In this document: one piece after another, positions 773 to 50,869 of the stretch | Layout: every line of letters starts with the position of its first letter | Position numbering within the stretch: the first letter of the stretch is position 1 | Position numbers and translations under genes: made by a program | Source of the DNA: Cryptosporangium aurantiacum | GTDB taxonomy: Bacteria > Actinomycetota > Actinomycetes > Mycobacteriales > Cryptosporangiaceae | Assembly: GCF_900143005.1 (NCBI RefSeq) | Contig: NZ_FRCS01000004.1 | Coordinates: 620,001 to 684,000 of the forward strand | DNA: 64,000 bases | Reading direction: 5' to 3' | The notes under the pieces: model-generated | The model's input: the letters and a program-made list of their open reading frames with translations, nothing else | Database searches by the model: none | Told to the model about the DNA's origin: nothing

Positions 773-2464
773 TCACACAGATGCGCGAATCGCGGCGAAG
801 AGGGGGGTCAGGCGGTGGCGCGGAATCTCCATCAGCGTCGCGTCGATCTCCGGCGCGGCGGCCGGGGCGCCCGGGCGCCCCGGCGGCCGCGCCGTGGGGA
901 GGAACTCGGCGACGCGCCTCGTGGCGTCGGGCTTCGGGAGGCCGCAGATCGTGACCAGCCCGTCCCGCCAGACGTTCACCAGCTTTCCGTGCGCCCGGTC
1001 CAGCACGTGCCGCACCAGCCGATCGCCCTGGTCCGGCGGCTCGTCCACGGCTACGGCCTCGACCAGCGCGGACGTCGGTCCCGGCGTACTCCGCCGGAAG
1101 CGCAGCGCCCACTTCGGCGCGACCAGCTCCGCGAGCGCGCGCTGGCTCACCGCGTCCGCCAGGTCAGGATGCTGGTTACCGACCGCCACCGCGACCCGCC
1201 GGGCGTCCACCGCCAGCAGGATCCGGAGCAGCCAGCTCCCCGGGTCGGCGGTCGCGTCGACCGCGACGGCCCCGGAACGCGCCGGCCCGGGTATCCCGCC
1301 GGTCCAGACCGCCCCGAGCGGCCGCTCCCCCACCAGCCGCGCGGCCGAGCCGCCCCGCGTGAGCGCGGCCCTCAGCACGCCTGGCGTCGGCGCCGCCTCG
1401 AGCACCGGTAGACCCTCCGGGCCGGCGGCGGCCTCCACCAGCGCGACCGCGACCTCCGCCGAGGCCACGCCGGACGCCTCGGCCGACTGCTCGCCGTGCG
1501 TATAAATCGTGGGCCGGCCGCCCCGCGCACCCTTCCGGCGCGCCTTGTTCGTCGGACGCAAGAGATAGAGGTCGCTCGCGCTGCCGACCGCCTGGGCGCC
1601 GTCGTAGCGGGAGAACGCGGGCCACTGCGCCTCGACCACGAGTTCCAGCTCCCCGAACGTCCGCTGGACGGCCAGCCCGAGGGCAGGCGTCCGCTCCGAG
1701 AACCCGTACGCGAGAAGAACCTGGCCGCCCGCCGTCAGCCCTTCGACCGCCCGTTCGAGGAACAGCCGCACGCCGTCCGGCGTGTACGGCGGGTCGGTGA
1801 ACGCGAGTCCGGCTCGCCCGGCCGCCGCCGGCGGTAGCCCGAACCGCAGGTCACCGGCGAGGCACCGCACCGAGAGCCCGGCCGACACCGCCGCCCCGTC
1901 GAGGTACGCGAGCAGCCGCTCGTCCACGTCCACCACGGTCGCGGTCAGCTCCGGCCGGAGCAGGCAGGTGGCCAGCGCGGTCAGGTCGTGGTCCCCGACG
2001 CAGAGCAGGTGGCCACCGGCCAGGTCGAAGTGGGCGTCCAGCCAGAGCGCGCGGCGGACCGCGGTCTCCGGGGTCGCCGCGACGTGGTCGAGCGCGCGCC
2101 GCGGCGGCGGGGCGTCGGCACGCAGCCGGGTCATGGTCGCCAGCAGGTCACCGGCCGCGGCCAGCGCCGGGCCGAGCGGATCCGCGAGTGCGGTGGTGCG
2201 CGGCAGACCGAACCGCTCCCGGTACTCCCCCGCGCGGTCGCCGCGGATCCGGAGGGCCTCGCCGGGCGCGAGATCGGGACCGAGCGCGGCAAGCACCTCC
2301 TCCACCGTGCGGCGCGGCACCGCAGTCACCCGCACCAACTCGGCGAGCGTCCACCCACGGTCGGTCAGCGCCACGACCACGTCCCGAATCGGCCGGGAGT
2401 GAACGCCGTACTCCGCGACCAACGCCGCGACCGCCGCGAGCCCGGCGTCCGAATCAGCAGTCAC
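773..2464 (-). CDS. BpsA-like N4-bis(aminopropyl)spermidine synthase family protein
   Basis: A 563-residue protein with an N-terminal winged-helix-like region (about 1-110), then a Rossmann methyltransferase-like core carrying GDHDLT (157-162) and DPPYT (224-228). These two motifs are the signature of branched-chain polyamine synthases, which move aminopropyl groups from decarboxylated S-adenosylmethionine onto spermidine. A C-terminal extension of roughly 200 residues, starting with a basic linker, has no motif I recognise and makes the protein longer than the archaeal and thermophile enzymes. The GTG at 2464 was chosen because it leaves room for the divergent kinase promoter; an in-frame ATG near 2540 is possible. 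No other polyamine gene is nearby, so substrate and function are inferred from the family only. Confidence 0.75.
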   Translation of the reverse strand: MTADSDAGLAAVAALVAEYGVHSRPIRDVVVALTDRGWTLAELVRVTAVPRRTVEEVLAALGPDLAPGEALRIRGDRAGEYRERFGLPRTTALADPLGPALAAAGDLLATMTRLRADAPPPRRALDHVAATPETAVRRALWLDAHFDLAGGHLLCVGDHDLTALATCLLRPELTATVVDVDERLLAYLDGAAVSAGLSVRCLAGDLRFGLPPAAAGRAGLAFTDPPYTPDGVRLFLERAVEGLTAGGQVLLAYGFSERTPALGLAVQRTFGELELVVEAQWPAFSRYDGAQAVGSASDLYLLRPTNKARRKGARGGRPTIYTHGEQSAEASGVASAEVAVALVEAAAGPEGLPVLEAAPTPGVLRAALTRGGSAARLVGERPLGAVWTGGIPGPARSGAVAVDATADPGSWLLRILLAVDARRVAVAVGNQHPDLADAVSQRALAELVAPKWALRFRRSTPGPTSALVEAVAVDEPPDQGDRLVRHVLDRAHGKLVNVWRDGLVTICGLPKPDATRRVAEFLPTARPPGRPGAPAAAPEIDATLMEIPRHRLTPLFAAIRASV

Positions 2465-2563: not shown

Positions 2564-4861
2564 GTGACCGATCAACTGGTCCCGCGGGTGAGCGCGTCGG
2601 GCGGTGACCTCCCTCCCGACCTACCCGAGGCCATCGTCGCGGTCGACCCCGACGGCCGGATCACGCAGGCGAACTCCGGCGCCGAGTTCCTGTTCGGCTA
2701 CAGCTGGGACGAGTTGGCGCAGCGGCCGCTCGACGACCTGCTCCGCGAACCGGCCGAGCTGCAGGACGCCACGGCTCAACCGCACGCCGGCATCGAGCTG
2801 GCCTGCCTGCGCAAGGACGGCAGCGAGTTCCTCGCCGAGCTCTCGCTGACCCCGATGGACACCCCGGAGGGGCCGCTCGTCTCGGTGGCGATCCGCGACC
2901 TCGGGCGGCGCAACCGGGCTGTGGAGCGGATGCGGTGGCTGTCCGCGATCGTCGAGCACGCGCACACGCCGATCGTCAGCGCGTCCACCGACGGGACGAT
3001 CACCTCCTGGAACACCGCCGCCGAGCGGGTCTACGGCTGGACGTCCGCGGAGATGGTCGGCCGCCCGATCACCGCGTTCGTCGAACCGGTCCACGCCGAG
3101 CTGGTCTCCGAGACGCTCGCGCAGGTCCGCGAGGGCGAGACCGTACACATCCCGGACGGCCAGATCCTCCGCGCCGACGGGCGGAGGGTCGCGGTGAGCG
3201 TCACCGCGTCCCCGATCGTCGGACCGAACGGGGGCGTCGTCGGGATCGCCTACGCGGCCCGCGACCTGAGCGACTCCGAGCGCGCGGAAGCCAAGTTCCG
3301 CTGGCTGCTCAACGCCACACCGCTCGCGATCATCGGCGTGGACGTCGACGGCCGGATCCAGATGGCGAACACCGAGGCGACCCGCGCGTTCGGCTACCTC
3401 GCCGACGAACTGGTCGGCGAGCAGATCGACACGGTGCTGCCGGACGCTAGACAGGCCGTGCTCGACGAATCCCGCAGCTCCCGCCGCGGCGTCGGGCAGA
3501 CCGACGTCGACAGCTCCCGGGCCACTGGCCGCCGCAAGGACGGCTCCGAGTTCCCGGCCGACATCCGGCTCTCCTCGCTGCTCACCGAGGACGGCGTGCT
3601 GATCGCGGTCACCGTGCACGACATGACCGCGCGGCTGGAGGGCGAGGCCGAGCGACTGCGCCTGGAGAACGAACTCCAGCGGTCGCAGCGGCTGGACAGC
3701 CTCGGGCAGCTGGCCGGCGGCGTCGCCCACGACTTCAACAACGTGCTGGCGATCATCCTGAGCCACGCGTCGATCGCCGAGGAGGACCTCAACGGCCTGG
3801 AGTCGCTGATCTCGCTCGGCGACGACCAGGGCAGGCTCGCCGGCGCTCGCCGCGCCGTCGAGCAGATGCACCAGGCCGCCGAGCGCGGCTCCCGCCTGAC
3901 CAAACAACTGCTCGCGTTCGGCCGGCGCGAGGTGGTCCGTCCGCAGGTCTTCCTGCTCAGCGAAGTGATGGCGGACGTCACCCGGCTGCTGGCGGGCACG
4001 CTCGGCACCGACGTCCGGGTATCGACGAGCAGCGACCCGGAGCTCTGGCCGGTGACCGCCGACCCGGGCCGGATCGAACAGGTGCTGGTCAACCTGGCCG
4101 TGAACGCCAGGGACGCGATGCCCAAGGGCGGGACGCTGCAGATCGACGCGGCCAACGTCGCGCTGGACTCGGCCCAGGCCGCTCGGTACGGGCTCACCGA
4201 CGGCCGCTACGTGCAGCTGCGGGTCACCGACACCGGCACCGGGATGCCGCCGGAGGTGGCCGAGCGGGCGTTCGAGCCGTTCTACACGACCAAACCCGAG
4301 GGGCAGGGCACCGGGCTCGGGCTGGCGTCGGTGTACGGGATCGTCTCGCAGGCGGCGGGCACCGTCTACCTGCGGTCCCGGCCGGGCTGGGGTACGACGG
4401 TGACGATCCTGCTGCCCGCCTCCGACGGCGCGCCCACCACGCGTCCGGAAGCGCCGGGCGCGGGTCGGCCGCCGACGCCGGAGGCCAGGCCCGACCGGTG
4501 CGTGCTGGTCGTCGACGACGAGCCCGACCTGCGCAAGTCGATCGAGATCATCCTCGGCCGGGGCGGGTACGCGGTGCTGTCGGCGGGCTCCGGCGACGAG
4601 GCGACGCAACTCGCCAGCGCCTACGAGGGGACGATCGACCTGCTGCTCACCGACGTCACGATGCCCGGGCTGTCCGGGCAGGAGGTCGCGAACCGGCTGC
4701 GGATCGACCGGCCGTCGATGCGGGTCCTCTACATGTCCGGCTTCGCCCAGCCGCTGCTGACGTCAAAGGGAACGATCGGCCCGGACGTCACGTTGGTGGA
4801 GAAACCGTTCACACGGCGCAGTTTGCTCGCGAAGGTCGCCGAAGTCCTCACGCCTGCCTAA
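2564..4861 (+). CDS. Hybrid sensor histidine kinase: three PAS domains, HisKA, HATPase and receiver
   Basis: A 765-residue cytoplasmic sensor with no predicted membrane segment. Three PAS domains occupy about 15-120, 130-250 and 255-370. The dimerisation domain has GGVAHDFNNVL with phospho-acceptor H389. An ATPase domain (G-box GTGLGLASVYG) follows, then a C-terminal receiver with acidic pocket D651/D652 and phospho-acceptor D697 in LLTDVTMPG. The order is that of hybrid kinases which signal through an internal receiver and usually need a partner phosphotransfer protein; none is visible nearby. The GTG start at 2564 sits behind GGAGG. It is divergent from the BpsA-like gene with about 100 bp between them. 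The PAS ligand cannot be told from sequence. Confidence 0.93.
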   Translation: MTDQLVPRVSASGGDLPPDLPEAIVAVDPDGRITQANSGAEFLFGYSWDELAQRPLDDLLREPAELQDATAQPHAGIELACLRKDGSEFLAELSLTPMDTPEGPLVSVAIRDLGRRNRAVERMRWLSAIVEHAHTPIVSASTDGTITSWNTAAERVYGWTSAEMVGRPITAFVEPVHAELVSETLAQVREGETVHIPDGQILRADGRRVAVSVTASPIVGPNGGVVGIAYAARDLSDSERAEAKFRWLLNATPLAIIGVDVDGRIQMANTEATRAFGYLADELVGEQIDTVLPDARQAVLDESRSSRRGVGQTDVDSSRATGRRKDGSEFPADIRLSSLLTEDGVLIAVTVHDMTARLEGEAERLRLENELQRSQRLDSLGQLAGGVAHDFNNVLAIILSHASIAEEDLNGLESLISLGDDQGRLAGARRAVEQMHQAAERGSRLTKQLLAFGRREVVRPQVFLLSEVMADVTRLLAGTLGTDVRVSTSSDPELWPVTADPGRIEQVLVNLAVNARDAMPKGGTLQIDAANVALDSAQAARYGLTDGRYVQLRVTDTGTGMPPEVAERAFEPFYTTKPEGQGTGLGLASVYGIVSQAAGTVYLRSRPGWGTTVTILLPASDGAPTTRPEAPGAGRPPTPEARPDRCVLVVDDEPDLRKSIEIILGRGGYAVLSAGSGDEATQLASAYEGTIDLLLTDVTMPGLSGQEVANRLRIDRPSMRVLYMSGFAQPLLTSKGTIGPDVTLVEKPFTRRSLLAKVAEVLTPA

Positions 4862-44321: not shown

Positions 44322-45908
44322 TTAGGCGTTGAGGCGGCGGTAGACCGGGGCAAGTTGCTTGTGCAGCGTCTTGTAGATCGCGAACACGTCCTCGTAGGCC
44401 TCGTGCGCCTTCGCGTCGGGGGCGAAGATCTCGTCGTTGCGGGCCAGGTCCGCGATCTCCGGGAACGTGACCAGCCCGGCGCCGACCGCCCCGATCCACC
44501 CCGCGCCCCGGGCGTTGACCGCGACCGGCCGGGCGTCTCGCCGGATCTCGACGCCGAGGACGTCGGCGAAGATCTGGCACCACGCGTCCGACCGCGCACC
44601 ACCGCCGGTGATGACCAGCGACGTCACCGGCGCACCGAGGAACTTGTTCACCGCACCGGACAGCCACCGGGTGTTGAACGCGACGCCCTCGAACACCGCA
44701 CGCAACAGATCGGAGCGGTTCGTGTCCAGCGAGATGTTGAAGAAGCCGGCGCGCAGCTTCGGGTCGTCGACCGGCGCACGCTCGCCGTAGAGCCACGGCG
44801 TGTAGAGGACGCCGTTCGCCCCGGCGGGCACCGTCGGCAGGATCCGGTCGAACGCGTCGAAGATCGACCCCTCGTCGCGGCTGATGTGACCGGCCCCGAC
44901 CAGCGGATCGTCGTACTCCACGACCTTGTCGCGCAGCCAGGTGAGGTTCGCGCCGGCGGTGGCCTGCAGCGCGGTCATCAGATACCGGTCGGGCACCGCA
45001 CAGGGCACCGACGCGATCTGCGCGAACACGTCGGTCTTCTTGCGACGGACGTGCGCGGCGATCCACGACGACGTCCCGAGGTACAGGTGCGGCTGGTTGT
45101 CAGCGACGGTGCCGGCGCCGACCGCGGCCGCGGTGTTGTCGATCGCGCCGGCCACGACCTGCACCCGCAGCGGCAGCCCAAGGTGCGCGGCCGCGCTCGG
45201 GGACAGCTCGCCGATCACGTCCGTGCAGGCGACGATCGGCGGCAGCTTGTCGCGGTCGATGCCGCTGTCGGCGACCAGCGCGGGCGAGTAGCGGATCTGC
45301 GCCGGCCGCCGGTTGTCGGTGACCCACGACGTCAGGATCGAATCGACGGTCGCCACCGTCCGCCCGGTGAGCTTGAGGTTGATCCAGTCGAGCACGTTGA
45401 GGAACGAGGCGGTCCGCTCGTAGATCTCGGGCATCTCGTCGCGCACCAGCAGCATGTGCGCGGCGGGGTCCTTGCCGGTCGTCGACGGCATGCCGCCGGT
45501 CAGCCGCAGCCACCGGGCGATGCGACGCACCGAGATGCCGTCGACCGCCGGAAACCCGCCGAACTGCTTCTTCAGGTGGGACGCGCCGCGCATGTCGAGC
45601 CAGGTGATGCACCGGCTCAACGGCTCGCCGTCGGCGTCTACCGGGATCGTGCCCTCGCCCTGCGTCGAGGAGCAGACCGTGGTCACCGCACGCAGGTGAT
45701 CGGGGTGCGAGCGGCCGAGCGCAGCCACCACGTCGGCGAGCGCGTTCCACCAGTCGTACGGGTCCTGTTCGGCGCCGCCGCCCGGCAGCACGTGCAGCGG
45801 CACCTCACGCTCGGCCCAGCCCGTCACGGTGCCATCGGCGGCGACCAGGGCCGCCTTCATGCCCGACGTCCCGAGGTCGATCGCGAGCACCTGCGGCTCG
45901 ATGCTCAA
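44322..45908 (-). CDS. FGGY-family carbohydrate kinase (xylulokinase-like)
   Basis: A 528-residue two-domain kinase with N-terminal LAIDLGTSGMKAALV, the FGGY central signature region GAIDNTAAAVGAG with HLYLGTSSW, and C-terminal LVITGGGARSDAWCQIFADVLG. The starting codon is TTG at 45908, overlapping the stop of the fusion gene (TTGA) and preceded by GGAGGG, so it is translationally coupled. Its substrate, probably a keto-sugar, sugar alcohol or related polyol, should be upstream of the aldolase domain of the coupled protein. Xylulose is only one option. Confidence 0.9.
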   Translation of the reverse strand: MSIEPQVLAIDLGTSGMKAALVAADGTVTGWAEREVPLHVLPGGGAEQDPYDWWNALADVVAALGRSHPDHLRAVTTVCSSTQGEGTIPVDADGEPLSRCITWLDMRGASHLKKQFGGFPAVDGISVRRIARWLRLTGGMPSTTGKDPAAHMLLVRDEMPEIYERTASFLNVLDWINLKLTGRTVATVDSILTSWVTDNRRPAQIRYSPALVADSGIDRDKLPPIVACTDVIGELSPSAAAHLGLPLRVQVVAGAIDNTAAAVGAGTVADNQPHLYLGTSSWIAAHVRRKKTDVFAQIASVPCAVPDRYLMTALQATAGANLTWLRDKVVEYDDPLVGAGHISRDEGSIFDAFDRILPTVPAGANGVLYTPWLYGERAPVDDPKLRAGFFNISLDTNRSDLLRAVFEGVAFNTRWLSGAVNKFLGAPVTSLVITGGGARSDAWCQIFADVLGVEIRRDARPVAVNARGAGWIGAVGAGLVTFPEIADLARNDEIFAPDAKAHEAYEDVFAIYKTLHKQLAPVYRRLNA

Positions 45909-48391
45909 ACGCCCTCCACCAATGCGAAGACCTGGTCGAACCGGGCCAGCGCGTCGTCGATCACCTCGTCGGTGTCGGCCATCGACGTGTACATCCGCGA
46001 ACCGGCGAGCGTAATGATGCCGTGCGCGGCGTACGCCGCGCTCATTTCTTCCATCAGCCGCTTACGCGGCTTGTTCTCCTTCAGCAGCTTCACCGGGTGA
46101 CGCATGTCGAGCAACATCACGCCACTGCACTCCAGGTGGACGATCGACCCCTGGTTGTAGACGACGTAGGGCAGGCCGTACTTGTCGACGATCCGCTGCA
46201 GACCACGGGTGAGCCGGTCACCGGCGCGCCCGGCGAGTACCGGGGCGTTGGTGCGGGCCATCTCCTCGATCGCGAAGTAACCGGCGGCGCAGGACAGCGG
46301 GTTCGCCGACAGCGTGCCACCGACCTGGACGTGCGAGCCGTTCTTGCCGTCCAGCCCGGACCCGAACACCGCCATGACGTCGGCCCGGCCGCCGACGCCG
46401 CCGGCCATCGGGTAACCGCCGGAGACCGCCTTGCCCAGCACGGTGAGGTCGGGGGTGACGCCGAAATAGCCGGACGCCCCACCGAGCCCGAGCCGGAACC
46501 CGGTGACGACCTCGTCGAAGATGAGCAACGCGCCGAACTCGTCGCAGAGCTCGCGCACCTTGGCGTTGTAGTCGTACGGCACCGGCCGCGTGCCGGACTC
46601 CGGGCCCACCGGCTCGACGATGACCGCTGCGGTGCCACCGCGCAGCCGGTTCTCGATCAGCTTGCGCTTGAGCAGCCCGAGGTCGTGCGGGAACGCCTCG
46701 CGCGTGCTGTTGGTGGCGCCGAACGGGATGCCCTTCGCGTTCATCCGGTACGTGCCGGGCACCCGCAGGCCGTAGACCATCGTGTCGGACCAGCCGTGGT
46801 ACGCACCGCCGACCTTGATCACGACGTTCTTGCCGGTGAACGCGCGGGCGCCGCGCACCGCGGCCATCACGGCCTCGGTGCCGGAACCCAGTGACCGGTA
46901 CATCTCGATGTGCGGCATGTACCGGTTGATGATCTCGGCGAGCTTGAGCTCGTATTCGTGGAACAGGCCGGTGACCGGGCCACTCGCCTTGATCACCTCG
47001 GCTACCCGCTCGTTGACCGGCGCGTAGTTGCTGCCGAGCAGTGTCGGGCCGCCTGCCTGCAGGAAGTCGATGTACGTGTTGCCGTCGCGGTCGGTGAGGT
47101 AGGCGCCCTCCGCCCGGTCGATCGCGAGCGGGAACGGGTAATTGAACGCCAGGTTGTGCTGGACGCCGCCGGGGATCCGGAGTTTGGCCCGGTCGGTGAT
47201 CTCCTTGCTGGCCCGGCACTTCGTCTCGAAGTAGTTGAGGACGTCGTGCATCGCGTCGTGCCGGAGGCCGCGAACCGGCTGCGCTACCAGCGCCTTGAGC
47301 CGCCGCATCGTGTCGTCGACGTCGGGATAGGTCGTGATCGCGTAGCCGAGCGCTGCGGATTCCGCCCCAATTGGTTGCGGGACGTCGTCCGCAGCGGTTT
47401 TGTCGTTGGTCGTGACGGATGCGGCCGCACCCTCGGCCGGCGTCGCTGACGGGGCCGCGGCCGGGTCGTCGCCCGCAGCGGATCCGAGGTCGGTCGCCGC
47501 GGCGACGACCGCGGCCAGGCCGGGCTTGCTGTCGGCAGCTCCGGGGACGGCCTCGGCGGGCACCGGAGCGGCCACGGTCGGCGCGGGGACGGCCACGGTC
47601 GGCGCGGGGACGGTCGTCGGAGCTGAGCCGGTGCCGGCCACGGCTCGGCGGGCGGCCTCGGCGACGCTGGGCAGCGACTCGTCCGTGGGGACGCGAAGGG
47701 GCTCCACCGCTGCGGTGATCTGGGCGGCGATCCGCTTCTCGTCCTTGCGGAGCTTGGTGAACGCGATCTCGCGGATCGCGTCCGGGATCGTGTAGACCTT
47801 CCCGGCCTCGGTGGTCAGCGCCAGCAGGTAGGCCAGCGACACCTTCTCCAGCAGCGCCATGTTGAACACCGCACGATCGGGGTCGGTGCCCAGCGCGATG
47901 ATGCCGTGGTTGGCGATGATGAACGCGTTGTCGCCGCTGGCGACCTTCTTCTGCACCTTCCCGGCGAGGAAGCTCGTGCCCGACGGCGCGTAGGGGATGA
48001 TCGCGACCTTGCGCCCGAGGAACCGGACCTGCTCGTCGGTGAGCGCGGGGATCTCCCGGCGGAGGAACGCCAGCGCCGAGGCGTACGGCTGGTGCGTGTG
48101 CACGATCGCGTTGACGTCGGGCCGCTCGCGGTAGATGTTCGCGTGCATCCCGCACTCGATCGACGGCGGCAGACCGGAGCCCGACCCCGGCAGCGGCTTC
48201 CCGTCGAACCCGACCAGGCTGATGTCCTCGGCGCGCATCCGGTCGTAGTCGTAGTTGCTGGGCGTGACCGCGTAGCAGTCGTGGCTCGGTACGCGGACCG
48301 AGACGTTGCCCTCGGTCGCCTTGAGGTAGCCGCGCTCCAGCATCGTGCGGCACATGTCCACGACGTGCTGGCGGGAGGTGCGGTGCTCCAT
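45905..48391 (-). CDS. Fusion of class II aldolase/adducin and class III aminotransferase domains
   Basis: An 828-residue protein. Residues 1-235 form a class II aldolase/adducin domain: KATEGNVSVRV, SIECGMHANIYRERPDVNAIVHTHQPYAS with zinc-ligand histidines, and IANHGIIALG. A linker of about 100 residues is Ala/Pro/Thr-rich with an imperfect PAPTVAVPAPTVAAPVPAEA repeat. Residues 345-828 form a PLP-dependent class III aminotransferase of the glutamate-1-semialdehyde mutase-like group: GSGTEAVMAAVRGARAFTG, LIFDEVVTGFR and PLP lysine K654 in LGKAVSGGYP. I do not recall this fusion as a characterised enzyme. Coupling to an FGGY kinase suggests that a phosphorylated sugar is cleaved and an aldehyde transaminated. 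ATG 48391 is used. Confidence 0.9.
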   Translation of the reverse strand: MEHRTSRQHVVDMCRTMLERGYLKATEGNVSVRVPSHDCYAVTPSNYDYDRMRAEDISLVGFDGKPLPGSGSGLPPSIECGMHANIYRERPDVNAIVHTHQPYASALAFLRREIPALTDEQVRFLGRKVAIIPYAPSGTSFLAGKVQKKVASGDNAFIIANHGIIALGTDPDRAVFNMALLEKVSLAYLLALTTEAGKVYTIPDAIREIAFTKLRKDEKRIAAQITAAVEPLRVPTDESLPSVAEAARRAVAGTGSAPTTVPAPTVAVPAPTVAAPVPAEAVPGAADSKPGLAAVVAAATDLGSAAGDDPAAAPSATPAEGAAASVTTNDKTAADDVPQPIGAESAALGYAITTYPDVDDTMRRLKALVAQPVRGLRHDAMHDVLNYFETKCRASKEITDRAKLRIPGGVQHNLAFNYPFPLAIDRAEGAYLTDRDGNTYIDFLQAGGPTLLGSNYAPVNERVAEVIKASGPVTGLFHEYELKLAEIINRYMPHIEMYRSLGSGTEAVMAAVRGARAFTGKNVVIKVGGAYHGWSDTMVYGLRVPGTYRMNAKGIPFGATNSTREAFPHDLGLLKRKLIENRLRGGTAAVIVEPVGPESGTRPVPYDYNAKVRELCDEFGALLIFDEVVTGFRLGLGGASGYFGVTPDLTVLGKAVSGGYPMAGGVGGRADVMAVFGSGLDGKNGSHVQVGGTLSANPLSCAAGYFAIEEMARTNAPVLAGRAGDRLTRGLQRIVDKYGLPYVVYNQGSIVHLECSGVMLLDMRHPVKLLKENKPRKRLMEEMSAAYAAHGIITLAGSRMYTSMADTDEVIDDALARFDQVFALVEGV

Positions 48392-49679: not shown

Positions 49680-50459
49680 GTGAGCACGACCACCACCACC
49701 CAGGCCCGCAACCGGACGACGCTGCTCAACCAGCTCGTCGCGATCGAGAAGAGCGTCAAGGCTCGTGCCAAGGACGCGCAGACGACGATCCACCAGCAGA
49801 TGCAGCGCGGTTCGCTGGAGGCGGCTCTCACCGGTCTGATCCGGACCTACCGGCCGATCGACGACGAGGGCGTCCGGCTCCCCGACGAGCGGACCCGCGT
49901 CCAGGTACACGTCGACGAGCTTCTCGACGAAGCGGCCCGCACGCTGTCCCGCCTGTTCGACGTCACGGCGAGCAAGGACGAGACGAACGCGCGTGCCCGC
50001 GGCGACATCGTCGTCGACGGCGAGACGATCGCGGCGCAGGTGCCGGTCACGTTCCTGATGACGCTGGAGAAGGAACTGATCGACTGGCGCGGCGTCGTGG
50101 CCAAACTGCCGGTTCTCGACATCGCCGACGTCTGGACCCGGGACGCCGACGCGGGTGCCTATCGGTCCGATCCGCGGGAGACGACCCGCACCGCGAAGGT
50201 CCCGCGGGTGCAGGTGCTCTACGAGGCCACCGAGAAGCACCCGGCGCAGGTCACCTCGTACAACGAGGACGTCGTGGTCGGTTTCTGGACGACCGTGAAG
50301 CTCTCCGGAGCGATCCCGGCCGGCCGGAAGGCGACGCTGCTCGACCGCGTCGACAAGCTCATCGCAGCCGTTCGGATGGCGCGTGAGCAGGCGAACATGG
50401 AGGAGGTTGTGGACAACCCCCTCGGTGCCGCACTGACCGGATACCTTCTGCGGGACTGA
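49680..50459 (+). CDS. Uncharacterised 259-residue protein
   Basis: I do not recognise a named domain with confidence. The protein is soluble and mixed alpha/beta. It starts Thr-rich (MSTTTTTQARNRTTLLNQL), has a helical KSVKARAKDAQTTIHQQMQ segment, a middle region IVVDGETIAAQVPVTFLMTLEKEL, and ends NPLGAALTGYLLRD. Codon use is typical of the region. The GTG at 49680 has a poor ribosome site. It is just upstream of the RNA locus and ends before two GC hairpins. Similar hypothetical proteins are, as far as I recall, widespread in actinomycetes. Confidence 0.75.
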   Translation: MSTTTTTQARNRTTLLNQLVAIEKSVKARAKDAQTTIHQQMQRGSLEAALTGLIRTYRPIDDEGVRLPDERTRVQVHVDELLDEAARTLSRLFDVTASKDETNARARGDIVVDGETIAAQVPVTFLMTLEKELIDWRGVVAKLPVLDIADVWTRDADAGAYRSDPRETTRTAKVPRVQVLYEATEKHPAQVTSYNEDVVVGFWTTVKLSGAIPAGRKATLLDRVDKLIAAVRMAREQANMEEVVDNPLGAALTGYLLRD

Positions 50460-50505: not shown

Positions 50506-50612
50506 AGAAGCTGAGACTGAGATTGAGGCTGACCAGGGCAGATGCGCCCGCCTTCAGGTTGAAGCTCTTGCGCCAAACTGAATATCGCCTCGGGCCGTCC
50601 GACACCATGTAC

Positions 50613-50712
50613 GCCGGCTCACTCGCTGAGAGTCCGGGTTCGAATCCCGGTTCCGCCTCCACCACGGCGGAATGGCTCAACGGCAGAGCGCAGCGAATCA
50701 GGCTGACCGGCG
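50613..50712 (+). ncRNA. Candidate circularly permuted tRNA (3' half encoded before 5' half)
   Basis: Reading along the plus strand: anticodon-stem 3' strand CGCTG (50624-50628), variable AGAGT, T-stem CCGGG, T-loop TTCGAAT, CCCGG (50634-50650), acceptor 3' strand TTCCGCC (50651-50657), T, CCA (50659-50661), linker CCAC, acceptor 5' strand GGCGGAA (50666-50672), TG, D-arm GCTC-AACGGCA-GAGC (50675-50689), G, anticodon-stem 5' strand CAGCG (50691-50695). The acceptor, D, anticodon and T stems all pair perfectly only in this permuted order; neither half has a mate in the usual place. Flanks CGCCGG (50613-50618) and CCGGCG (50707-50712) also pair and would close the precursor at the anticodon loop. 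Anticodon identity is unclear. Confidence 0.6.
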
Positions 50713-50744
50713 CCGACGGTGACGGAGGTCGTCAACGCGAGGCG

Positions 50745-50815
50745 AGAGTTGTAGCGCAACGGAAGCGCGCATCCCTTCAGAGGATGAAGTGCGGGTTCGA
50801 TTCCCGCCGACTCCA
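50745..50815 (+). tRNA. tRNA-like cloverleaf with UCA (opal-reading) anticodon
   Basis: Acceptor AGAGTTG/CGACTCC (six pairs including one G-T, with an A1-C72 mismatch), T8, D-arm GCGC-AACGGAA-GCGC, anticodon stem CATCC/GGATG with loop CTTCAGA (U33 present, anticodon TCA at 50777-50779), 4-nt variable loop AAGT, T-arm GCGGG-TTCGATT-CCCGC, discriminator A. No CCA is encoded. All stems are intact, so it could be a UGA suppressor-type tRNA. The short variable arm and 7-bp acceptor exclude tRNA-Sec. The mismatch at the acceptor end may mean decay. Confidence 0.6.
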
Positions 50816-50837: not shown

Positions 50838-50869
50838 GGCCCCGGGGGACGGGTAAAGCCCCCGGGGCC
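50838..50869 (+). terminator. Hairpin terminator of the RNA locus
   Basis: GGCCCCGGGGG (50838-50848) and CCCCCGGGGCC (50859-50869) form an 11-bp GC stem followed by GCCACATTT. A smaller hairpin AACGTGG/CCACGTT lies just upstream. Confidence 0.7.

What the first reader, a model, noticed from the sequence alone, without database searches (positions are those of the whole stretch)
50613..50712. Candidate circularly permuted tRNA gene in a bacterium
A 3' tRNA half (anticodon-stem strand, T-arm, acceptor strand, encoded CCA) comes directly before a 5' half (acceptor strand, D-arm, anticodon-stem strand), separated by CCAC. Acceptor 7/7, D 4/4, anticodon 5/5 and T 5/5 pairs are perfect only in permuted order, and flanks CGCCGG/CCGGCG would hold the ends together. 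Permuted tRNAs are established in some algae and archaea; I know of none confirmed in bacteria. The alternative is a tandem tRNA duplication that lost its outer halves, which is also the proposed origin of permutation.
Basis: seen in the sequence. Interest (0 to 1): 0.85.

Follow-up and report, generated by a model that had tools for sequence, protein, structure and literature searches.

The report
tRNA-mimic RNA paired with unknown protein
The permuted tRNA is real, but it is best read as one part of a larger RNA that imitates tRNAs and is encoded beside a protein of unknown function; the same pair occurs in many soil bacteria and in phages of very different hosts, and looks like a new relative of bacterial Y RNAs.

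Summary
Observation confirmed. Window 50612-50712 has T-arm, acceptor stem and D-arm in circularly permuted order. It is the only hit of a permuted-tRNA descriptor in the 64 kb. It is conserved, with compensatory changes, in 2 of 3 other genomes of the genus; the third lacks both it and its neighbour gene.

It is probably not a decoding tRNA but a domain of a roughly 350-nt RNA encoded just after a DUF7873 (PF25283) gene. A permuted core lies within 900 nt downstream of DUF7873 in 80 of 80 bacterial and 71 of 80 viral loci (upstream 0 and 3) and downstream in 11 of 12 isolated-phage loci. Unconstrained folding of 27 relatives recovers two permuted modules; 49 of 65 pairs show double-sided compensatory changes. 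The window clade keeps the second module.

The architecture is that of the bacterial Y RNA YrlA, a known tRNA mimic (Rfam match end to end, 30.3 bits, cut-off 69). But the neighbour is not Ro60; three genomes with the RNA show no Ro60 match; this genome's Ro60 gene has its own YrlA-like RNA. Likely role, untested: a DUF7873 RNP that shows tRNA-like ends to tRNA-handling machinery.

The parts
49680..50459 (+). DUF7873 (PF25283) protein gene, 259 aa; the regular neighbour of this RNA
   Evidence: Pfam E 1.1e-95; permuted core downstream in 80 of 80 bacterial and 71 of 80 viral DUF7873 loci; AlphaFold model mean pLDDT 91.5, no fold assigned
50508..50592 (+). 5' part of the RNA: CTGA-rich element (from 50508) and the linker GAAGCTCTTGCGCCAAACTGAATATCGCC (50561-50589) that relatives carry between modules 1 and 2; module 1 itself is missing here
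   Evidence: Comparison of alignments A7 and A6 by eye; positions; the true RNA start is not known
50585..50592 (+). Possible 5' strand of an outer helix (TCGCCTCG, with CGAGGCGA at 50738-50745)
   Evidence: Read by eye, positions; not chosen by the three-sequence consensus fold; tentative
50612..50712 (+). Circularly permuted tRNA-like module (the finding), closed by CGCCGG/CCGGCG
   Evidence: Sequence; pair counts and model R1; Rfam YrlA over 50611-50716, model 1-114 of 114, 30.3 bits
50634..50650 (+). T-arm; compensatory change in relative G002
50651..50672 (+). Acceptor stem (TTCCGCC / GGCGGAA) closed by U73-CCA-CCAC
   Evidence: in relatives CCA stands at exactly this position in 78 of 178 distinct modules with loops of 7 or more nt, and at the four other offsets tested in 2
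50675..50689 (+). D-arm
50745..50815 (+). Normal-order tRNA-like element called tRNA-SeC (anticodon TCA); probably a further module of the same RNA
   Evidence: ARAGORN and Rfam 63.5 bits; anticodon loop altered in G002; first acceptor pair not standard (alignment)
50838..50869 (+). GC-rich terminator-like hairpin ending the unit
   Evidence: Stem kept in three genomes, similar hairpin in relatives, positions; the terminator scan, which asks for a T-run, found none

Best explanation
SHOWN by sequence comparison: the permuted tRNA is a structural module of a noncoding RNA encoded directly after, and on the strand of, a DUF7873 gene. The two form a cassette found in many Actinomycetota, a few other bacteria, and phages of Actinomycetota, Cyanobacteria and Pseudomonadota hosts. 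The typical RNA carries two modules with T-arm, acceptor stem and D-arm in permuted order, the second on a long helix. The window clade lacks module 1 and has a normal-order tRNA-like element after module 2. INFERRED: DUF7873 binds the helix and linker part of the RNA; the modules fold into the tRNA elbow plus acceptor arm and present it to machinery that recognises tRNAs, much as YrlA is reported to hold Ro60/Rsr by its stem and PNPase by its tRNA-like domain. The RNA is thus a tRNA-mimicking adaptor of a DUF7873 RNP and does not decode. Which machine it engages (a nuclease such as PNPase, RNase P, a tRNA-attacking defence enzyme, or the ribosome) is unknown.
For: Descriptor within 900 nt downstream of DUF7873: 80/80 bacterial and 71/80 viral loci, two or more modules in 56 and 45; upstream 0/80 and 3/80; one mononucleotide shuffle of each downstream stretch 0/80 and 1/80. 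11 of 12 isolated-phage loci that I opened. Consensus fold of 27 RNAs recovers both modules, 49/65 pairs with double-sided changes. In the window clade, compensatory changes in T-stem and flank helix. RNA and DUF7873 are both missing from G001. YrlA-like architecture. G002, G004 and G422 have the RNA but no TROVE match at E 0.001; G000's TROVE gene has its own YrlA-like RNA. No third protein family is seen with the cassette in both bacteria and viruses; at most 6 of 80 viral flanks share one.
Against: No expression, binding or phenotype data. The Rfam match is below its curated cut-off. The anticodon-type stem is not chosen by folding in this module. The 80+80 loci are the best-scoring relatives kept by the tool (of 531 and 113), and many are close kin. 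Nine of 80 viral loci (one of them with only 128 nt of downstream sequence) and the Microcoleus phage have no descriptor hit. No known RNA-binding fold was recognised in DUF7873. The neighbour survey is crude: mechanical ORFs in 2.5-kb flanks, whose largest clusters (33, 28 and 12 of 80, all bacterial) look like spurious frames or shared chromosomal surroundings. The tether role is an analogy.
Confidence: 0.6

Rival explanations
1. Opened tRNA: RNase P and 3' processing cut the loop that joins the acceptor strands, leaving a base-paired RNA with a free 5' G and 3' CCA, as in two-piece tmRNA. The anticodon-less tRNA is charged and used outside decoding.
For: N73 is followed by CCA in 78 of 178 distinct modules with loops of 7 or more nt, against 2 at the four other offsets tested. 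In module 2 the base before the 5' acceptor strand is U in 28/46 bacterial and 42/59 viral distinct modules (T elsewhere in the loops 0.20 and 0.24), and that strand starts with G in 48/61 and 58/62. The window clade encodes CCA in 3 of 3.
Against: Many bacterial loops are short and lack CCA; the window clade has C, not U, at -1; bacterial module 1 shows little U(-1) excess (9/41, background 0.17; viral module 1 has 17/32). Loci with a single hit were counted as module 2, so the split is rough. CCA could be a relic of phage tRNA ancestry. No processing data.
Confidence: 0.2
2. Decoy or counter-defence: phages carry the RNP to occupy or distract host enzymes that attack tRNAs during infection; bacteria have taken it over.
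For: 9 of the 12 phage loci opened have at least one annotated tRNA within 3 kb, three of them 8 or more (in the Klebsiella phage the only one is a doubtful suppressor call). Bacterial DUF7873 sequences lie among viral ones in the tree; patchy, 7 of 396 sampled Actinomycetota genomes, the window's own included. A competitive-inhibitor role was suggested for YrlA by others (passage of PMC7790460).
Against: Found in many bacterial chromosomes; no PADLOC match of the protein; flanks were not searched for defence genes.
Confidence: 0.2
3. An ordinary Ro60 Y RNA that happens to lie away from its gene.
For: End-to-end YrlA match; G000 and G003 do have a TROVE gene.
Against: No TROVE match in G002, G004 (93% complete) and G422; the TROVE loci of G000 and G003 have their own YrlA-like RNA; the regular neighbour is DUF7873.
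Confidence: 0.1
4. A true circularly permuted tRNA gene, spliced at the anticodon loop as in algae and archaea; both loop halves contain TCA, so a UCA (opal) anticodon would result.
For: Permuted order with encoded CCA; a joined loop AATCACT can be drawn.
Against: No bulge-helix-bulge seen; in relatives the region runs into a covarying helix and two modules share one RNA. Bacteria are not known to have the archaeal-type splicing endonuclease (recalled, not searched here).
Confidence: 0.04
5. Debris of tandem tRNA genes that lost the outer halves.
For: The module order equals the middle of a tandem pair.
Against: Conserved with compensatory changes over distant bacteria, and present in phages.
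Confidence: 0.01

Closest known systems
Bacterial Y RNA YrlA (Rfam RF02553) with Ro60/Rsr (TROVE)
   Same: Permuted order T-arm, acceptor, D-arm closed by an acceptor loop; a basal helix replaces the anticodon arm; the RNA lies beside its protein gene
   Different: Partner gene is DUF7873, not TROVE; often two modules, long conserved linkers and its own terminator-like hairpin, roughly 350 nt; Rfam score under the cut-off; found in genomes without a TROVE match
Circularly permuted tRNA genes of Cyanidioschyzon, prasinophytes and Thermofilum
   Same: 3' half precedes 5' half; intervening sequence at the acceptor end; encoded CCA in some
   Different: No splice motif, no anticodon, often two modules per RNA
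Two-piece (permuted) tmRNA
   Same: A permuted tRNA-like end that could be opened by tRNA processing enzymes
   Different: Only partial sub-threshold matches to tmRNA models; a tag reading frame was not looked for
tRNA-like noncoding RNA linked to SPFH/Band-7 modules in RNA-repair systems (Burroughs and Aravind 2016; recalled, paper not held)
   Same: tRNA-like RNA encoded with a scaffold-like protein; one phage here (NiceHouse) has a Band-7-like gene nearby
   Different: No recurring Band-7 neighbour was seen, in a crude survey and in the annotation of 11 of 12 phage stretches; whether the two RNAs are the same could not be checked

Membership tests
YrlA Y RNA | T-arm, acceptor, D-arm in permuted order on a basal stem | tested here: met
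   alignment over model positions 1-114
YrlA Y RNA | Rfam curated score | tested here: not met
   30.3 bits against 69; the best TROVE-adjacent RNAs of five unnamed actinobacterial genomes also fall short (38-44 bits), so the cut-off is strict
YrlA Y RNA | Cognate Ro60 (TROVE) gene beside it | tested here: not met
   Neighbour is DUF7873; no TROVE match in G002, G004, G422
YrlA Y RNA | Ro60-binding sequence in the basal stem | not tested
   Some resemblance noticed by eye, from recall only
Circularly permuted tRNA gene | 3' half upstream of 5' half | tested here: met
Circularly permuted tRNA gene | Bulge-helix-bulge at the junction and an anticodon loop after joining | tested here: not met
   Judged by eye and by folds: 6-nt and 11-nt loop strands under a 6-bp helix; long covarying helix in relatives
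Circularly permuted tRNA gene | Circular intermediate and mature charged tRNA | not testable with these tools
   needs RNA
Canonical tRNA | Detected by ARAGORN or the Rfam tRNA model | tested here: not met
   (the neighbour at 50745-50815 is detected)
Two-piece tmRNA | Full tmRNA model and tag reading frame | tested here: inconclusive
   only partial sub-threshold matches; reading frame not looked for
Band-7-linked tRNA-like RNA | Linked SPFH/Band-7 gene | tested here: inconclusive
   annotated in 1 of the 12 phage stretches opened; neighbour survey crude; paper not held

The most novel reading that the evidence does not exclude
Bacteria and their phages share a second, Ro60-independent class of permuted-tRNA ribonucleoprotein: DUF7873 with an RNA of two circularly permuted tRNAs, whose acceptor loops are opened by the tRNA maturation enzymes into CCA-ended, anticodon-less and possibly charged tRNAs used for a non-decoding task during phage infection or tRNA stress.
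Probability: 0.2. Interest if true: 0.92.

Novelty: new variant of a known kind. Interest (0 to 1): 0.75.

Why it matters
It gives a protein family of unknown function a regular RNA partner, in a family with at least 531 matching bacterial stretches (the RNA itself was checked in 80 of them) and 73 phage records. It indicates that the permuted tRNA-mimic architecture of Y RNAs is not tied to Ro60, so what tRNA mimicry is for can be tested in a second system. It also offers a reason for odd annotations such as suppressor or selenocysteine tRNAs next to DUF7873, and corrects the idea that permuted tRNA-like RNAs do not occur in bacteria.

Tried and rejected
Debris and chance: rejected by conservation and covariation. 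Ordinary tRNA genes: they explain 10 of the 17 genomes matched by model R1 in the sample of 396 Actinomycetota (nine with two or three tRNAs in a row, one with a single tRNA near a contig end); the other 7, the window's own included, lie beside DUF7873 (G000, G422) or TROVE (G024, G083, G216, G248, G387). A weak second R1 match in G000 (C20, E 0.019) has no T-loop and looks like coding sequence to me. DNA-level searches of phage and plasmid records found nothing; the protein search did. PHROGs, NCBIfam and PADLOC gave no family at E 0.01 for the DUF7873 proteins tried. PDB sequences: best E 0.2. Structure: no Foldseek match with E 0.001 or less in PDB or BFVD; best VIA-align Z 9.1 to 3kdq_A, a C. 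diphtheriae protein of unknown function, rmsd 7.8 over 149 residues, next Z 7.2, so no fold is assigned. The promoter and T-run terminator scan found none.

Neighbour survey (rechecked): single-linkage clusters of mechanical ORFs. The three largest (33, 28 and 12 of 80 bacterial loci, 0 viral) have low-complexity or antisense-looking members and I set them aside as spurious frames or shared chromosomal surroundings; they were not scanned against Pfam. No viral cluster covers more than 6 of 80 loci. This does not exclude a third gene further away.

Descriptor false positives seen: upstream hits in 3 of 80 viral loci; upstream hits in two Vibrio phage loci, one hit across ordinary tRNAs in Phendrix and one on the other strand in L054.

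Literature: ten searches of the open-licence library. No paper names DUF7873 or PF25283; none holds both 'permuted tRNA' and 'Actinobacteria'; among the titles and abstract starts listed (lists are capped) none is on this RNA. Most subscription papers are not in the library, so this is not proof of absence. Not held: Burroughs and Aravind 2016, and two YrlA papers and a Ro60/Y RNA review. Papers seen only as passages: PMC4033280, PMC7824862, PMC7790460, PMC8394870, PMC11090510, PMC3978253; PMC7609411 was searched for four terms and held none. No paper was read whole.

Full report
What is in the sequence. In order 5' to 3' there are a T-arm, the acceptor 3' strand, U73-CCA, CCAC, the acceptor 5' strand and a D-arm, between CGCCGG and CCGGCG. 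ARAGORN and the Rfam tRNA model do not report it; they report a normal-order tRNA with anticodon TCA at 50745-50815. A simple descriptor (T-arm with TTCRA loop; 6 or more of 7 acceptor pairs; D-arm with GG) finds only this site on both strands of the 64 kb. Its folding energy alone is not unusual (z -0.88).

Conservation in the genus. Of three other genomes of the genus, G003 (95% identity) and G002 (84%) have it and G001 does not. All 27 pairs of the proposed structure are kept in all three sequences, two through changes on both sides (T-stem G-C to A-U; flank helix C-G to U-A) and one through a one-sided change; 42 of 500 shuffles reach this, so three sequences alone are weak evidence. The anticodon stem does not vary, and free-energy folds put two small local hairpins in its place.

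A larger family. A covariance model of the three (R1) matched a second genus of the family (G004, E 6.8e-14) and, in a sample of 396 Actinomycetota genomes, 17 genomes. Ten of these are ordinary tRNA genes. The other seven, the window's own included, lie beside one of two protein genes: DUF7873 (G000, G422) or TROVE, the Ro60 domain (G024, G083, G216, G248, G387). The Rfam model of the bacterial Y RNA YrlA matches the window RNA from end to end at 30.3 bits, under its 69-bit cut-off; the TROVE-adjacent RNAs score 38-44 bits in their best matches. YrlA is described as a long stem with a tRNA-like domain (D, T and acceptor arms), modified by DusA and TruB, that holds Rsr (Ro60) by the stem and PNPase by the tRNA-like domain (passages of PMC8394870). 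So the architecture itself is known in bacteria.

The partner here is DUF7873. The gene directly upstream (49680-50459) is DUF7873 (PF25283, E 1.1e-95). Among 11 genomes searched by handle, 6 have DUF7873; these 6, and the 4 others found, have permuted modules just downstream. G001 lacks both. TROVE gives no match at E 0.001 in G002, G004 (93% complete) and G422, which have the RNA; in G000 and G003 the TROVE gene lies on another contig with its own YrlA-like RNA within about 1 kb of the domain match. The window RNA is therefore unlikely to be the Ro60 RNA.

Wide test. From at least 531 bacterial and 113 viral relatives of DUF7873, the tool kept the best 80 of each. Within 900 nt downstream, the descriptor hits 80 of 80 bacterial loci (two or more modules in 56) and 71 of 80 viral loci (45); upstream it hits 0 and 3; in one mononucleotide shuffle of each downstream stretch 0 and 1. 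A few contigs end early, so some stretches are shorter than 900 nt, and many loci are related. I opened 12 isolated-phage loci: 11 have at least one module downstream (Arthrobacter, Gordonia, Rhodococcus, Pseudanabaena, Rhizobium, Klebsiella and Vibrio phages); the Microcoleus phage does not. In all, 73 phage records encode DUF7873, all under 60% identity.

Structure of the whole RNA. Twenty-seven bacterial RNAs, chosen by me mostly among two-module loci, were aligned (A6). RNAalifold, given no structure, found both permuted modules and long helices under module 2; 49 of 65 pairs have double-sided compensatory changes, in up to 15 of 27 sequences at one acceptor pair. It found an anticodon-type stem in module 1 but not in module 2. 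Conserved linkers lie between and after the modules. In the window clade module 1 is missing, module 2 is the finding, and the tRNA-like element at 50745-50815 follows it. That element is unlikely to be a working opal suppressor or selenocysteine tRNA: its anticodon loop is altered in G002, where ARAGORN reads only two anticodon letters.

Hints at processing. Among 178 distinct modules with loops of at least 7 nt, CCA follows N73 in 78, and stands at the four other offsets tested in 2. U precedes the 5' acceptor strand of module 2 in 28 of 46 bacterial and 42 of 59 viral modules, against a T share inside the loops of 0.20 and 0.24. This fits RNase P cleavage and CCA ends (the U(-1) preference is recalled). 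It is weaker for bacterial module 1 (9 of 41; viral module 1 17 of 32) and fails in the window clade, which has C at that place. Loci with a single hit were counted as module 2, so the split between modules is rough. An anticodon-type stem of 5 pairs can be drawn, at one of several allowed offsets, in 143 of 209 distinct modules against 36.5 expected when strands are exchanged.

The protein. The DUF7873 proteins tried match no PHROGs, NCBIfam or PADLOC family. The AlphaFold model is confident (mean pLDDT 91.5, pTM 0.69): long helices and beta strands. No library match is strong enough to assign a fold. Bacterial sequences fall in several places among viral ones (8 changes of label on the tree, at least 2 forced by well-supported branches), and the window clade sits on a long branch (0.98). 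It is patchy: 7 of 396 sampled Actinomycetota genomes, the window's own included. A crude survey of ORFs in 2.5-kb flanks showed no third family shared by bacteria and viruses.

Reading. Shown: a conserved cassette of DUF7873 and a structured RNA with one or two circularly permuted tRNA-like modules. Inferred: DUF7873 binds it; the modules act as tRNA mimics towards tRNA-handling machinery, by analogy with YrlA. Open: whether module 2 is cut open and charged, and whether the phage copies protect against tRNA-attacking defences. I call it a new variant of a known kind, with two cautions: I found no description of it in the searched library, but most subscription papers are not held there, and the 2016 description of a tRNA-like RNA in Band-7 systems (recalled) could be related.

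Noticed in passing
window 50745-50815: Called tRNA-SeC by ARAGORN (anticodon TCA); the loop is altered in G002, so probably a further module of the RNA and not a selenocysteine tRNA.
   Followed up: partly
L233 3811-3890 (Klebsiella phage vB_KpM_FBKp24): Annotated as a suppressor tRNA (TTA), but overlaps the second permuted module (descriptor 3863-3941) after DUF7873: a likely mis-annotation of the same kind.
   Followed up: partly
   Followed up: partly
L065 3935-4144 (Microcoleus phage My-WqHQDG): A HEARO RNA (129 bits, over its cut-off) lies just after DUF7873, where other phages have the permuted RNA.
   Followed up: no
L061 1057-1585 (Gordonia phage Phendrix): A phage-borne tmRNA (Rfam 89 bits, cut-off 47) near the same tRNA cluster; not annotated in the record.
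   Followed up: no
L064 5757-5936 (Pseudanabaena phage PA-SR01): Sub-threshold match to permuted tmRNA (31.9 bits, cut-off 47), about 2 kb downstream of DUF7873.
   Followed up: no
window 1256-1347, minus strand: ARAGORN reports a 92-nt tRNA-Pro (cgg) that Rfam does not confirm at its cut-off.
   Followed up: no
window 45905-48391, minus strand: One ORF fuses a class II aldolase/adducin domain to a class III aminotransferase domain.
   Followed up: no
Deinobacterium chartae (control genome): Carries DUF7873, outside Actinomycetota; I did not read its downstream region.
   Followed up: no
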